A stretch of DNA of 27,396 bases from positions 1-27,396 of the IMG/VR virus record IMGVR_UViG_3300040856_001210; one strand, given 5' to 3'. This stretch comes from a virus. The position numbers and the translations under genes were made by a program. This document shows, one piece after another, positions 14,863 to 19,449 of the stretch. The notes below the pieces were generated by a model. That model did not search any database and was not told the origin of the DNA. It worked only from the letters and a program-made list of their open reading frames with translations. Numbering within the stretch: the first letter of the stretch is position 1; each line of letters opens with the position of its first letter.

Positions 14863-15084
14863 TCCAATATCCACCCCACCTTACCCACAAATACCCACCT
14901 AGCTATCCACTCATCTGCCCCCTGCAACCACCGTTTTTTTGGCGGCGGCGGATCGGTGCAGGGCAGGGGCAAAGTGCGGTTTCGTCATCTGATAAACAAA
15001 GAACTGGACACCGATTGCGCACCGAATTAATCGTGGGTTTGGGGCGGTTCCCGTCCCGCAATTCTAACTGGAGAAAATGACCAA

Positions 15085-15288
15085 ATGACAAATGAAACAG
15101 ACAACGTGATCCAATACAAAAAGCCAGACCAAAAAGATCGGTTCGAGGTGATGTTTATGATCAGCCTCGAAGTTGAGGCAAATGATAAAGAACACGCCCG
15201 ACAGGTGGCAAAAGACGAATTCGAATTTTCAGATTTGAACTACGCCGACATCATTGTGAAACCATTAGATAATGAGGCCGCCGAATGA
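15085..15288 (+). CDS. Small hypothetical island protein (67 aa)
   Basis: A small acidic protein, MTNETDNVIQYKKPDQKDRF, with a central strand-helix-strand (EVMFMISLEVEANDKEHARQ and ADIIVKPLDN). This layout recalls short regulator or inhibitor folds, but no family is recognised. The conserved island leader with GGAG precedes the ATG, and an overlapping four-codon frame (ATG ACC AAA TGA, 15077-15088) ends on the real start codon. It is the first of five rightward genes that overlap one another by a few bases, ending at a terminator, so they form one translationally coupled operon. Confidence 0.75.
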   Translation: MTNETDNVIQYKKPDQKDRFEVMFMISLEVEANDKEHARQVAKDEFEFSDLNYADIIVKPLDNEAAE

Positions 15289-16100: not shown

Positions 16101-16383
16101 CTTGACAGGCCGTAGAGCCGCTCAGAGGCCCGCTGAGTGGGGGGAACGGGGCCGATAACCTAGACATCAAAAAAATGCCTTCCCCCTACTCAGTGGCAAA
16201 AACAGGTTTTTTTGAGTGTATAAAGCCTGTATTTTATATGTGTTTTTATCCGCCTATATATATGTATCAAACAAGGTGCATGTTTCGTGATTTAACAAAG
16301 TGCTTGTGCAGCCAATGAAAACCGTGTTAAGGGAAGGCACGGGCGGTGTGCCCGAATGAAACTTTTAACTTGGAGATGACCAG
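16101..16383. other. Control region of the ribozyme operon
   Basis: Together with the preceding terminator this makes a gene-free gap of 314 bases. It contains an imperfect inverted repeat of 17-base arms (16130-16146 and 16180-16196, 15 of 17 paired), an AT-rich tract with a candidate promoter, and two mutually exclusive hairpins: CCGTG (16322-16326) with CACGG (16338-16342), or GGCAC (16336-16340) with GTGCC (16348-16352). The conserved leader with GGAG follows. I see no coding frame that I can support. Confidence 0.6.
16212..16240 (+). promoter_or_regulatory. Candidate promoter of the ribozyme operon
   Basis: TTGAGT (16212-16217) and TATATG (16235-16240) are spaced by 17 bases inside the most AT-rich part of the island, after a terminator and before the first gene of the operon. 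Confidence 0.5.
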
Positions 16384-16770
16384 ATGACCCTAGCAACCGA
16401 AGCAGACGCCGTAAGAGAATGGGCTTGGAATGTAGGATATGAAGACCACTACATTAACCAACAATGGATATGCTCGAACTACGACACTTGGGAACGCAAC
16501 CCCCATTATACTGGGCCAGAACAGGCGCACCCAGAGAGTGAAGACTACTATTACGAACAAGAGGCCGAGGCCGAGCGGATCGCCCTACAAAATAAAAAGG
16601 GCATGGACATGGTTTGGCTGAAATATTCGAAACCAGAAAATTTGCCGTTTGAATTTCGCAACCAACCAGAATGGGAACCCTGCCGCAAAAATTGCGTTAG
16701 CCCTTGGGGAATGTTTGGCCCAGTGCGGGATGGTTTCTGGGATGAGATGGGTGAAGAAATCCCTTTTTAA
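16384..16770 (+). CDS. Hypothetical protein (128 aa), first gene of the ribozyme operon
   Basis: The protein is acidic and rich in aromatic residues: many Trp and Tyr (VREWAWNVGYEDHYINQQWI, SEDYYYEQEAEAER), with a C-terminal Trp/Pro/Gly-rich part (NCVSPWGMFGPVRDGFWDEM). I recognise no family; it has no signal peptide or membrane span. The conserved leader puts GGAG eight bases before the ATG, and a four-codon frame (ATG ACC AGA TGA) overlaps the start. A hammerhead ribozyme follows at once and even uses the last base of the TAA stop in its stem II, so cleavage of the message probably competes with translation termination. Confidence 0.72.
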   Translation: MTLATEADAVREWAWNVGYEDHYINQQWICSNYDTWERNPHYTGPEQAHPESEDYYYEQEAEAERIALQNKKGMDMVWLKYSKPENLPFEFRNQPEWEPCRKNCVSPWGMFGPVRDGFWDEMGEEIPF

Positions 16771-16829
16771 TTCGAAACGCCTTCGGGCGTCTGACCACCT
16801 TGGGCAAGGGTCACTGATGAGAATGCCCC
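16770..16829 (+). ncRNA. Hammerhead ribozyme 1 (type II order)
   Basis: Core read in order: stem II 3' strand ATTC (16770-16773); GAA (16774-16776); stem III ACGCC, TTCG loop, GGCGT (16777-16790); cleavage-site C16791; stem I TGACC (16792-16796) with GGTCA (16809-16813); CTGATGA (16814-16820); stem II 5' strand GAAT (16821-16824). All conserved core bases are present. Loop I GGGC (16802-16805) can pair with GCCC (16825-16828). Predicted cut is after 16791. Confidence 0.85.
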
Positions 16830-16850
16830 ACAACTTGAAGGAATGACCAA

Positions 16851-17822
16851 ATGAACACTTTTGCAAATCTACAGCACCTATCACCTGAGATCATCAGCTT
16901 GGCGCAGGAACTACATAAACGCCAACAGGCCGAGGCCAAACCATCCGCCGAGATGCTGCGCCTTTTCCCTGCGTTGGATAAAACAGGGTTCGAGGCCGAG
17001 GCCGTGCCAACCGCCCACGAATTGCCTGATGGATCGTTTGAGGAAATCCCCACGCACATTGGCCGCCTGATCCGCCGCACCGATACGCTGCAAGCCTTGG
17101 GTGTTGTCGGGGCACGTTATGCCATCGCACAAAACACAGACCTTGCCGACAAATTGGCCGAGGGCTGCGAGGCTGCGCTGCCTGCCCACGCATTGCAGGG
17201 GATCGAACTAAAAGAGGTCACATCCAAAAATGGTGCGTTCTCTCGGTTCGAATATCGCTTTCCTAATCTCGGCGCAGACATCCGCCAACTGACAGGCCGC
17301 AGCACTCAACTACAATTTCGGGTTTCAGTATCCAATGGGTTCGGCGGTCAGGCGATCCGCACAGTGGCAGGAGCTATAGATTTTTTCTGCGATAATGGGA
17401 TGGTGCTAGGCGATTTCGAAACCTCGATTTTCCGCCACACCTCTGGGTTTAATCCAAACAAGGTGCGTGATTTCGTGCGCCTCGAAGCAGACCGTTTTAA
17501 CGAGCGGGTGCGCATCTGGCAGCGTTGGGCATTAAACGAGATCACACCCGCCGATGCCGAGCTTGCATTGGAACATGCGGGGATGTCGGGCCGAGTGATC
17601 AAAAACATCATGGAACAGTTCGATTTAGAGGCGCAGGAACGTGGTTGCACAACGTGGGCTTTATATTCTGCCCTGACCTATCGTGCGTCCCACAATTCGG
17701 ATCGCTTCAAGGTGCGTAACACTGGCATCGATAATGTTGCCGAAACACTAGACCGCCGAGAGCGTGAGGTTTCCCAGATCATCGCACACCCTGCAATGGA
17801 ATATGTCGGGATGGTTGCATAG
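16851..17822 (+). CDS. DUF932 family protein (323 aa)
   Basis: The middle and C-terminal parts match the DUF932 (phage/plasmid-like) family: LGVVGARYAIAQNTDLADKL, RVSVSNGFGGQAIRTVAGAI, IDFFCDNGMVLG and CTTWALYSALTYRASH. The family is common on plasmids, phages and genomic islands; its biochemical activity is not established. The length is normal. The start follows AAGGA by eight bases, with the overlapping ATG ACC AAA TGA mini-frame. It is the second gene of the operon and lies between two hammerhead ribozymes, so after cleavage it would be on its own RNA, with a stem I hairpin at the 5' end and a stem III hairpin at the 3' end. Confidence 0.85.
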   Translation: MNTFANLQHLSPEIISLAQELHKRQQAEAKPSAEMLRLFPALDKTGFEAEAVPTAHELPDGSFEEIPTHIGRLIRRTDTLQALGVVGARYAIAQNTDLADKLAEGCEAALPAHALQGIELKEVTSKNGAFSRFEYRFPNLGADIRQLTGRSTQLQFRVSVSNGFGGQAIRTVAGAIDFFCDNGMVLGDFETSIFRHTSGFNPNKVRDFVRLEADRFNERVRIWQRWALNEITPADAELALEHAGMSGRVIKNIMEQFDLEAQERGCTTWALYSALTYRASHNSDRFKVRNTGIDNVAETLDRREREVSQIIAHPAMEYVGMVA

Positions 17823-17884
17823 TCGAAACGGGGCGCAAGCCCCGTCCGCAGGACAAGGCCACCCTGCGCTGATGAGACAGGCCT
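17822..17884 (+). ncRNA. Hammerhead ribozyme 2 (type II order)
   Basis: Stem II GTC (17822-17824) with GAC (17876-17878); GAA (17825-17827); stem III of seven pairs (17828-17834 with 17839-17845) capped by a GCAA tetraloop; cleavage-site C17846; stem I CGCAGG (17847-17852) with CCTGCG (17863-17868); CTGATGA (17869-17875). Loop I AGGCC (17856-17860) pairs with GGCCT (17880-17884). The last base of the DUF932 stop codon is in stem II. Confidence 0.9.
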
Positions 17885-17909
17885 AAATTCTAACTTGGAG
17901 AACATGACC

Positions 17910-18503
17910 ATGAACAAGATTTCACTAGACGGTTTCGCCGCAGATAACGCCCCAAAATGGGTTCGCACTAAATCCAAAAACGCATGGGGTCAGGCGTCGA
18001 TCATCGCCGAGCGCAAAGCCCTTGGGGCCACCCTTCAGGAACTGGCGGATGATTACGGGGTTTCGATGCCCACGATTTCCCGCATCATTAGCACACAGAA
18101 CGTAGGCAAAGCCCTGCGCCGTGATCTGAAGAACACCCGCCTTGCCTTGGAGCAGTCCCAGAAAGATTTGGCATGGGCCAGAAAAGATTTGATCGAGGCC
18201 GAGGAACGGGCGGATTCATACAAGGCCGATTTGAAGGCCGCATGTTTTCGTGCAAACGAGGCCGACAAATTCGCCACCGAAACTATCGAGGCCTTACATG
18301 CGGATCTGGCAGCATCGAAGGCCAACGAACAGGCCGCAGTGGATCGCCTGACCGATGGCGACAGTTGGGCCAATCGTTGGCAAAATGAATACCTGCAAGC
18401 CAAGGCCGATTTAGAGGCCGCCGAGGCGCAGATCGATCAGATGGCAGAACGCCTTGCAGAGTGTCGGAACCGTGGTTTCTGGGCACGGGTATTTAATCGC
18501 TGA
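17910..18503 (+). CDS. HTH protein with a long coiled coil (197 aa)
   Basis: The N-terminal 60 residues contain a helix-turn-helix: LGATLQELADDYGVSMPTIS followed by RII, as in resolvase and small regulator families. From about residue 70 the chain is a long Ala/Glu/Lys-rich coiled coil (LKNTRLALEQSQKDLAWARK, ADLEAAEAQIDQMAERLAEC) ending in a basic FWARVFNR. It may be a DNA-binding dimer that bridges or segregates DNA, or a regulator of the island. I chose the ATG at 17910, nine bases after GGAG; the in-frame ATG at 17904 would leave only three bases. It lies between ribozymes 2 and 3. Confidence 0.75.
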   Translation: MNKISLDGFAADNAPKWVRTKSKNAWGQASIIAERKALGATLQELADDYGVSMPTISRIISTQNVGKALRRDLKNTRLALEQSQKDLAWARKDLIEAEERADSYKADLKAACFRANEADKFATETIEALHADLAASKANEQAAVDRLTDGDSWANRWQNEYLQAKADLEAAEAQIDQMAERLAECRNRGFWARVFNR

Positions 18504-18506
18504 TTA

Positions 18507-18578
18507 GTCGAAACAGGGGCGGCTGCTGTCGCCTCTGTCTGTGGGATCGAAGGCCTACCCGCACTGATGAGACAGGCC
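18507..18578 (+). ncRNA. Hammerhead ribozyme 3 (type II order)
   Basis: Stem II GTC (18507-18509) with GAC (18571-18573); GAA (18510-18512); stem III of nine pairs with one G-U (18513-18521 with 18530-18538) and an eight-base loop; cleavage-site C18539; stem I TGTGGG (18540-18545) with CCCGCA (18558-18563), one G-U; CTGATGA (18564-18570). Loop I GGCCT (18552-18556) pairs with AGGCC (18574-18578). It begins three bases after the previous stop codon. Confidence 0.9.
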
Positions 18579-18601
18579 ACAATTTTAACTTGGAGTTGCA
18601 C

Positions 18602-18925
18602 ATGCAATTATTGACCAAAACCATCCGCCTTCAACTAGAGGCAAACGCCAAAAACCCTGATGCTGATCACAAGCCCGTGGTGAAGCTATTCAATCCCGTA
18701 GGGGCCGCCACATGGCTGTTGACCGAGATCGAGGGCGACACCGCTTTCGGCCTATGTGACCTCGGCATGGGATCGCCTGAACTAGGCAGCGTATCCATTA
18801 GCGAGTTGGAGGGCATCACATTGCCCCTAGGTCTCAGCATCGAGCGTGATCTGCATTTCACCGCCGATAAAACGATTTCACAATATGCCGAGGCCGCACG
18901 GGCCAAAGGCTATTTGGAGGCGTGA
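18602..18925 (+). CDS. DUF2958 family protein (107 aa)
   Basis: MQLLTKTIRLQLEANAKNPD, then VVKLFNPVGAATWLLTEIEG and FGLCDLGMGSPELGSVSISE, and an ERDLHF motif, match DUF2958, a small family found on plasmids, integrative elements and phages; the function is unknown. The ATG at 18602 follows GGAG by six bases. The gene is the fourth of the ribozyme operon, separated from the HTH gene by ribozyme 3 and from the next gene by two bases, so these last two genes stay on the same RNA after cleavage. Confidence 0.87.
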   Translation: MQLLTKTIRLQLEANAKNPDADHKPVVKLFNPVGAATWLLTEIEGDTAFGLCDLGMGSPELGSVSISELEGITLPLGLSIERDLHFTADKTISQYAEAARAKGYLEA

Positions 18926-18927
18926 TC

Positions 18928-19395
18928 ATGGGCTTGGATATGTACATGACAGGTGAAAAGTATTTCGTGCGGGACTACGGGAAAAAAGTACCTCATGCAT
19001 CGCTGATCGATGAGAACGAAGGCCGCCCCCTCGATACTGAGGGGGAGCATATCGAGAGCGCAAATTACCGCCTCGGATACTGGCGCAAGTTCGCACCCCT
19101 GCATCATTTCATCGTGAATGAATTTGCAAATGGTGAAGACGATTGCCAGCGCATCGGTTTGGGCCGTGATGATCTGATCAAAATTGCCGAGGCCATCGAG
19201 GGCAACAAATTGCCAGCTAATGAAGACTGCGGCGGGTGTTTCTTTGGATCGCCCGAATGGTGGGATGCAGCCAGAGTGGACAAAGCCCATGCAGCGACAT
19301 TTCGAGCGGCTGCGGTGTGGTGCGAGGCTGCGCCGAAGTACGAGAGCGGATTGCTGAAGCAATGGCGCAGCGTCCATTATCAGGCCAGTTGGTAA
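18928..19395 (+). CDS. Hypothetical MGLDMY-type protein (155 aa)
   Basis: The start MGLDMYMTGEKY, followed by LGYWRKFAPLHHFIVNEFAN and a central GCFFGSPEWWDAA, belongs to a recognisable group of phage and bacterial proteins that begin MGLDMYL and carry a YWRKxxxxHxW/F-F-V motif. I know of no demonstrated activity. GGAGG precedes the ATG, which lies two bases after the DUF2958 stop. Several Trp and His residues in conserved places hint at an enzyme or binding protein. An intrinsic terminator follows, closing the ribozyme operon. Confidence 0.78.
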   Translation: MGLDMYMTGEKYFVRDYGKKVPHASLIDENEGRPLDTEGEHIESANYRLGYWRKFAPLHHFIVNEFANGEDDCQRIGLGRDDLIKIAEAIEGNKLPANEDCGGCFFGSPEWWDAARVDKAHAATFRAAAVWCEAAPKYESGLLKQWRSVHYQASW

Positions 19396-19418
19396 CAGCC
19401 CCACAAATAAGACAATCG

Positions 19419-19449
19419 AAAGCCCTGCCAATCGGTGGGGCTTTTCTTT
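19419..19449 (+). terminator. Rho-independent terminator of the ribozyme operon
   Basis: AAAGCCC and GGGCTTTT flank a 12-base loop and a T-rich tail follows. An alternative longer stem uses AGCCCCAC (19397-19404) with GTGGGGCT (19435-19442). Confidence 0.8.

What the first reader, a model, noticed from the sequence alone, without database searches (positions are those of the whole stretch)
16770..18578. Three tandem type II hammerhead ribozymes, one in each of three consecutive intergenic spacers
Each spacer carries GAAA, a closed stem III, the cleavage-site C after GT, a closed stem I and CTGATGA, in the order expected when stem II is the open helix. All invariant core bases are present three times, although the helices differ in sequence and length. 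Stem III is 5, 7 and 9 pairs with TTCG, GCAA and an eight-base loop. Stem II is ATTC/GAAT, GTC/GAC and GTC/GAC. The differences preserve pairing, as expected for a conserved RNA. Hammerheads are known in phages and metagenomes, but three in series between the genes of one operon is something I do not know as described.
Basis: partly seen in the sequence, partly recalled or inferred. Interest (0 to 1): 0.93.

Follow-up and report, generated by a model that had tools for sequence, protein, structure and literature searches.

The report
Self-cutting RNAs between phage genes
Three self-cutting RNA elements (type II hammerhead ribozymes) sit in three consecutive gaps between genes of a marine Roseobacter phage, where they probably cut one long message into single-gene messages; ribozyme clusters of this kind have been known since 2011, but here close relatives in cultured phages make their unknown purpose testable.

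Summary
A descriptor search of the whole window finds exactly three type II hammerheads, at the stated cleavage sites (16791, 17846, 18539), against 0.025 expected. Rfam Hammerhead_II matches all three: 39.7 bits (above the 37-bit cut-off), 30.2 and 26.3 bits. In orthologous spacers of related phages, including cultured CRP-3 and CRP-212, the helices change on both sides and keep pairing while the core is fixed.

The novelty claim is wrong. Perreault et al. 2011 (PMC3088659) reported ribozyme clusters flanking single genes in prophages and cleavage by a triple in Agrobacterium.

What this work adds: in IMG/VR such junctions are common, with up to 8 per contig. Most abut the upstream stop codon, the next start lies about 27 nt past the core, and one gene often exactly fills the gap between ribozymes. 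Gene order differs between relatives, yet a ribozyme stays at each junction.

Most likely function: co-transcriptional cutting of a polycistronic mRNA into single-gene mRNAs with hairpins at the cut ends. Cleavage was not tested.

The parts
16770..16831 (+). HH1, type II hammerhead between gene X and the DUF932 gene: stem II 16770-16773/16821-16824, GAAA 16774-16777, stem III 16777-16781/16786-16790, cleavage after C16791, stem I 16792-16796/16809-16813, CTGATGA 16814-16820, pseudoknot GGGC 16802-16805 x GCCC 16825-16828
   Evidence: descriptor, Rfam RF02276 26.3 bits, below the 37-bit cut-off
17821..17886 (+). HH2, type II hammerhead between the DUF932 and HTH genes: stem II 17822-17824/17876-17878 (G17822 is the last base of the stop codon TAG), GAAA 17825-17828, stem III 17828-17834/17839-17845, cleavage after C17846, stem I 17847-17852/17863-17868, CTGATGA 17869-17875, pseudoknot AGGCC 17856-17860 x GGCCT 17880-17884
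   Evidence: Rfam RF02276 39.7 bits, above cut-off; descriptor; orthologs in CRP-212, CRP-3, L003, L133, L162
18506..18581 (+). HH3, type II hammerhead between the HTH and DUF2958 genes: stem II 18507-18509/18571-18573, GAAA 18510-18513, stem III 18513-18521/18530-18538, cleavage after C18539, stem I 18540-18545/18558-18563, CTGATGA 18564-18570, pseudoknot GGCCT 18552-18556 x AGGCC 18574-18578
   Evidence: Rfam RF02276 30.2 bits, E 0.0047; descriptor; orthologs
16384..16770 (+). gene X, 128 aa, phrog_36991 (unknown function); its stop codon TAA overlaps HH1 stem II by one base
16851..17822 (+). DUF932 protein, 323 aa; 95% identical to a hypothetical protein (gp56) of Roseobacter phage CRP-212
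17904..18503 (+). helix-turn-helix plus coiled-coil protein, 199 aa (weak HTH_23 match, below cut-off)
18602..18925 (+). DUF2958 protein, 107 aa
   Evidence: E 6e-40
18928..19395 (+). 155-aa protein of unknown function, last gene of the operon; no ribozyme before it
19418..19445 (+). probable intrinsic terminator closing the operon
   Evidence: consensus scan; number found no higher than in shuffles

Best explanation
The three elements are active, pseudoknot-stabilised type II hammerhead ribozymes in an accessory operon (about 16.3-19.45 kb) of a CRP-3-like (HMO-2011-type) Roseobacter phage. Each folds as the polycistronic RNA is made and cuts after its C17, giving separate mRNAs for gene X, for DUF932 (16792-17846), for the HTH gene (17847-18539), and for DUF2958 plus the 155-aa gene (18540 to the terminator). 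Because stem II is the open helix, both products end in a closed hairpin: the upstream mRNA ends stop codon-GAAA-stem III with a 2',3'-cyclic phosphate, and the downstream mRNA begins with a 5'-OH and stem I, followed by the Shine-Dalgarno sequence. The likely benefit is independent translation and decay of each gene, with the hairpins and unusual ends shielding the pieces from exonucleases and 5'-dependent decay. Shown here: the motif, pseudoknot potential, conservation of pairing, and placement. Inferred: transcription as one RNA, cleavage in the cell, and the benefit.
For: Three exact cores at the predicted sites, 0.025 expected by chance. Rfam matches. In orthologous spacers of 5-6 phages (window, L003, CRP-212, CRP-3, L162, and L133 for HH2) seven of 13 helix positions of HH2 and four of 13 of HH3 show two-sided changes with no mispair; the relatives were found with the same descriptor, but CRP-212 and CRP-3 were fetched by their DUF932 protein alone. 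In 173 distinct viral relatives, 90% form a loop I x tail pseudoknot of 4 or more Watson-Crick pairs, against 22% when tails are swapped. Of 164 strict-pattern matches in IMG/VR not selected for helices, 93% form both stems I and III, 0% after shuffling. Placement: 159 of 202 viral ribozymes lie within 10 nt of a same-strand stop codon (14 in the opposite-strand control); start codon a median 27 nt after the core. 54 of 90 consecutive pairs have exactly one gene filling the gap. Similar tandem arrays were shown to cleave by Perreault 2011.
Against: No cleavage data for these three. HH1 and HH3 score below the Rfam cut-off. Pseudoknot-free folding does not give the full three-way fold for the window's three, and their folding z-scores are weak (-0.14, -1.13, -1.20). 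In Perreault 2011, 4 of 18 consensus hammerheads showed no activity. No transcript data show that the genes are co-transcribed. Most HMO-2011-type isolates checked lack matches, so the ribozymes are dispensable for this type of phage.
Confidence: 0.72

Rival explanations
1. The ribozymes cleave, but their main role is in gene exchange: stop-ribozyme-leader junctions act as standard joints, so that a gene with its ribozyme can be gained, lost or reordered by recombination between the repeated joints without spoiling expression of its neighbours.
For: Gene X plus HH1 is absent from CRP-212, CRP-3, L003 and L162. In IMGVR_UViG_3300046167_000321 the order is HTH-HHR-DUF932-HHR-DUF2958, against DUF932-HHR-HTH-HHR-DUF2958 elsewhere, with a ribozyme still at each junction. 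Nearly the same stem I loop (ACCTTGGGCAAG) occurs at different junctions in different phages. 3 of 21 clean indels have both ends in the ribozyme/leader zone, 0.06 expected. The module is mosaic: DUF932 is closest to CRP-212 but DNA polymerase is closest to CRP-3.
Against: Few independent cases: two of the three indels share one phage. Most indels lie elsewhere. No enzyme specific to the joints was found. Exchange alone would not require a conserved catalytic core and pseudoknot.
Confidence: 0.3
2. Translation-gated processing: because stem II overlaps or abuts the upstream stop codon, a terminating ribosome would cover stem II and GAAA and block the fold, so cleavage happens only on messages that are not being translated at that moment, or after the ribosome leaves.
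For: The stop codon lies 2-6 nt before GAAA in 140 of 202 viral ribozymes, and 2 nt before it in 65, where its last base is the third base of stem II; HH2 shows this directly and HH1 shares one base through its fourth pair.
Against: Phage spacers are compact, so tight packing alone explains the distance. No data on timing.
Confidence: 0.15
3. The motifs are inactive remnants or simple mRNA-end hairpins, not working ribozymes.
For: HH1 and HH3 are below the Rfam cut-off; weak folding z-scores; some consensus hammerheads are inactive in vitro.
Against: Fixed core with two-sided helix changes and a conserved pseudoknot across orthologs; no sign of decay. Spacer identity to CRP-212 (93% and 96%) exceeds that of the adjoining genes (88% and 75%).
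Confidence: 0.06

Closest known systems
Type II hammerhead ribozyme (Rfam RF02276; Perreault et al. 2011, PMC3088659)
   Same: Permuted order with open stem II, full conserved core, loop I x 3' tail pseudoknot, short stem II, phage setting
   Different: Nothing basic; HH1 and HH3 score below the curated cut-off
Clustered hammerheads flanking single genes in prophages (Agrobacterium tumefaciens ardA triple, Azorhizobium caulinodans, Clostridium scindens; Perreault 2011)
   Same: Several ribozymes in series on one transcript, separating single genes of varied identity; association with integrase-bearing prophages
   Different: Here in a marine HMO-2011-type Roseobacter phage with cultured relatives; all three are type II; ribozymes abut stop codons, and arrays in viral contigs reach 6-8
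HHphage of haloviruses HF1/HF2 (Perreault 2011)
   Same: Phage hammerhead just upstream of a start codon in an early transcript
   Different: Single, variant core with insertions, archaeal virus
Roseobacter phages CRP-3 (MK613345) and CRP-212 (MZ892988)
   Same: Same DUF932-HTH-DUF2958 module with two orthologous ribozymes
   Different: Lack gene X and HH1; neither annotated record shows a ribozyme in the stretches read, and the HMO-2011-type papers found by the search contain no 'hammerhead'

Membership tests
Type II hammerhead ribozyme | Covariance-model match to RF02276 at the curated cut-off | tested here: inconclusive
   HH2 above the gathering score: met. HH3 and HH1 below it, with E 0.0047 and 0.00088 in small searches
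Type II hammerhead ribozyme | Invariant core GAAA, UH at the cleavage site, CUGANGA | tested here: met
   all three
Type II hammerhead ribozyme | Stems I and III closed, stem II open | tested here: met
Type II hammerhead ribozyme | Pseudoknot between loop I and the 3' tail of stem II (4 or more pairs in a majority of members) | tested here: met
   4, 5 and 5 Watson-Crick pairs in HH1-3; 90% of viral relatives against 22% in swaps
Type II hammerhead ribozyme | Helix covariation at orthologous sites | tested here: met
   HH2 and HH3; HH1 has no ortholog at hand
Type II hammerhead ribozyme | Self-cleavage after C17 in Mg2+ | not testable with these tools
   needs in vitro transcription
Clustered prophage hammerheads | Two or more ribozymes in series flanking genes of one transcription unit | tested here: met
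   three on one strand between four same-strand genes, no + strand terminator between them in the consensus scan; co-transcription itself not shown

The most novel reading that the evidence does not exclude
Stop codon-ribozyme-leader junctions are a general punctuation system of phage accessory operons: one ribozyme per gene, with gene and ribozyme gained, lost and reordered as a unit, and cleavage tied to translation termination of the upstream gene.
Probability: 0.2. Interest if true: 0.75.

Novelty: new member of a known kind. Interest (0 to 1): 0.42.

Why it matters
The purpose of hammerheads in bacteria and phages has been called an open question (PMC6155905, 2017). The window shows the same module as two cultured Roseobacter phages, of which CRP-3 is reported able to integrate, so cleavage can be mapped and mutated during real infections. 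The wider survey shows that one-gene, one-ribozyme arrays are frequent in viral contigs and tightly placed against stop codons, which narrows the possible functions to those acting at gene ends.

Tried and rejected
Chance motif: rejected. Intrinsic terminators: no T-run follows the stems, and the scan places no + strand terminator between 16384 and 19395. First relatives labelled as HH2/HH3 orthologs included L049, which proved to lie before DUF932, and L133, which follows DUF932; recounted without that error. Search for clean gene-unit indels gave only three cases with both ends at ribozymes, too few to establish cassette movement. Pfam on 139 downstream genes found no shared function (DUF932 4, AAA_5 4, ArdA 1), which matches the published remark that gene identities are not constant. 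Structure prediction was not used: the question is about RNA. One search failed on pattern limits and on a frame error. The context numbers use a simple descriptor and ORF rules, and relatives were gathered with a GTC/GAC stem II pattern, so they describe that subset.

Full report
What was checked. Rfam's Hammerhead_II model scores HH2 at 39.7 bits (cut-off 37), HH3 at 30.2 and HH1 at 26.3. HH1 appears only when a short stretch is searched.

Perreault et al. 2011 (PMC3088659) report that most type II hammerheads can form a pseudoknot between loop I and the strand just after stem II. All three can: GGGC x GCCC, AGGCC x GGCCU and GGCCU x AGGCC, with different sequences. Among 173 distinct viral relatives 90% have four or more Watson-Crick pairs there, 22% when tails are swapped between ribozymes.

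Where it is. The window is an IMG/VR virus record of 27,396 bases. Its DNA polymerase is 82% identical to Roseobacter phage CRP-3 and 69% to CRP-212, its DUF932 protein 95% to CRP-212 and 73% to CRP-3: an HMO-2011-type phage of Rhodobacteraceae with a mosaic accessory module. The operon runs gene X, DUF932, HTH/coiled-coil, DUF2958, a 155-aa gene, then a probable terminator at 19418-19445. Ribozymes fill the first three junctions; the fourth has no space.

Orthologs. CRP-212 and CRP-3, both cultured and with no RNA feature annotated in the stretches read, carry ribozymes in both orthologous spacers; whole-record searches find two in each. Two further IMG/VR contigs (L003, L162) have the same pair. 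Across these (with L133 for HH2), seven of 13 helix positions of HH2 and four of 13 of HH3 have changes on both sides, with no mispair. The ribozyme spacers are more alike than the neighbouring genes between the window and CRP-212 (93% and 96% against 88% and 75%). Five other HMO-2011-type isolates gave no match, though nothing rang in that call's controls either; CRP-1, CRP-345 and HMO-2011 also had none in a call where others did.

How common. A strict pattern (fixed GTC/GAC stem II and core) matched 120 stretches in IMG/VR before the scan stopped at its limit, and 85 in one genome per species of bacteria and archaea. Of viral matches, not selected for helices, 93% form stems I and III; of genome matches 62%, so more of those are chance. 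The viral loci hold 202 ribozymes: 159 lie within 10 nt of a same-strand stop codon, most often with GAAA two bases after it, and starts follow a median 27 nt after the core. Of 90 consecutive pairs, 54 have one gene exactly filling the gap. Rfam-supported arrays of 6-8 occur in single contigs.

Shuffling. Gene X with HH1 is missing from the relatives. In IMGVR_UViG_3300046167_000321 (read across its ends, which split DUF932) the order is HTH-HHR-DUF932-HHR-DUF2958, so two genes are swapped, yet each junction keeps a ribozyme. This supports a role tied to the junction, not to a given gene, but the number of cases is small.

Mechanism. The simplest account is co-transcriptional cutting of a polycistronic mRNA into single-gene mRNAs, as Perreault et al. 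proposed for prophage clusters. The type II order has a feature of its own: the upstream piece ends in the stem III hairpin right after the stop codon, and the downstream piece starts with the stem I hairpin before the Shine-Dalgarno sequence, so both cut ends are structured. That the ends protect the RNA is inference from general knowledge of RNA decay. Whether the stop codon's overlap with stem II gates cleavage by translation is open.

Novelty. Type II hammerheads and their clusters between phage genes were described in 2011, including a tested triple, and reviewed in 2017. The window is a new member of that kind. New, as far as the library searched shows, are the occurrence in CRP-type Roseobacter phages and the measured stop-codon placement; Perreault's main text has no 'stop codon', and the papers on HMO-2011-type phages found have no 'hammerhead'. 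The library holds only open-licence papers, so this is a weak negative.

Noticed in passing
L022, L057, L111, L081, L098, L006 (IMG/VR contigs): Arrays of 7-8 type II hammerheads in single contigs, mostly one small gene between neighbours.
   Followed up: partly
L049 (reverse) and L133, IMGVR_UViG_3300046167_000321: DUF932 and HTH genes in swapped order relative to CRP-3, with a hammerhead kept at each junction.
   Followed up: partly
window 16797-16808; L126 near 2277; L133 near 181; L147 near 1839; L148 near 1772: The same stem I loop (ACCTTGGGCAAG) at different gene junctions in different phages; stem III seems to go with the upstream gene.
   Followed up: no
window 15050-15090, 16360-16384, 16832-16851, 17885-17910, 18585-18602: A shared leader (roughly TAACTTGGAG...ATGACCAAATG) precedes most + strand genes of this region, with or without a ribozyme.
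   Followed up: no
L234 7244-7299 and 7376-7431 (Desulfovibrionaceae MAG): Two strict pattern matches only about 130 nt apart, too close for an ordinary gene between them.
   Followed up: no
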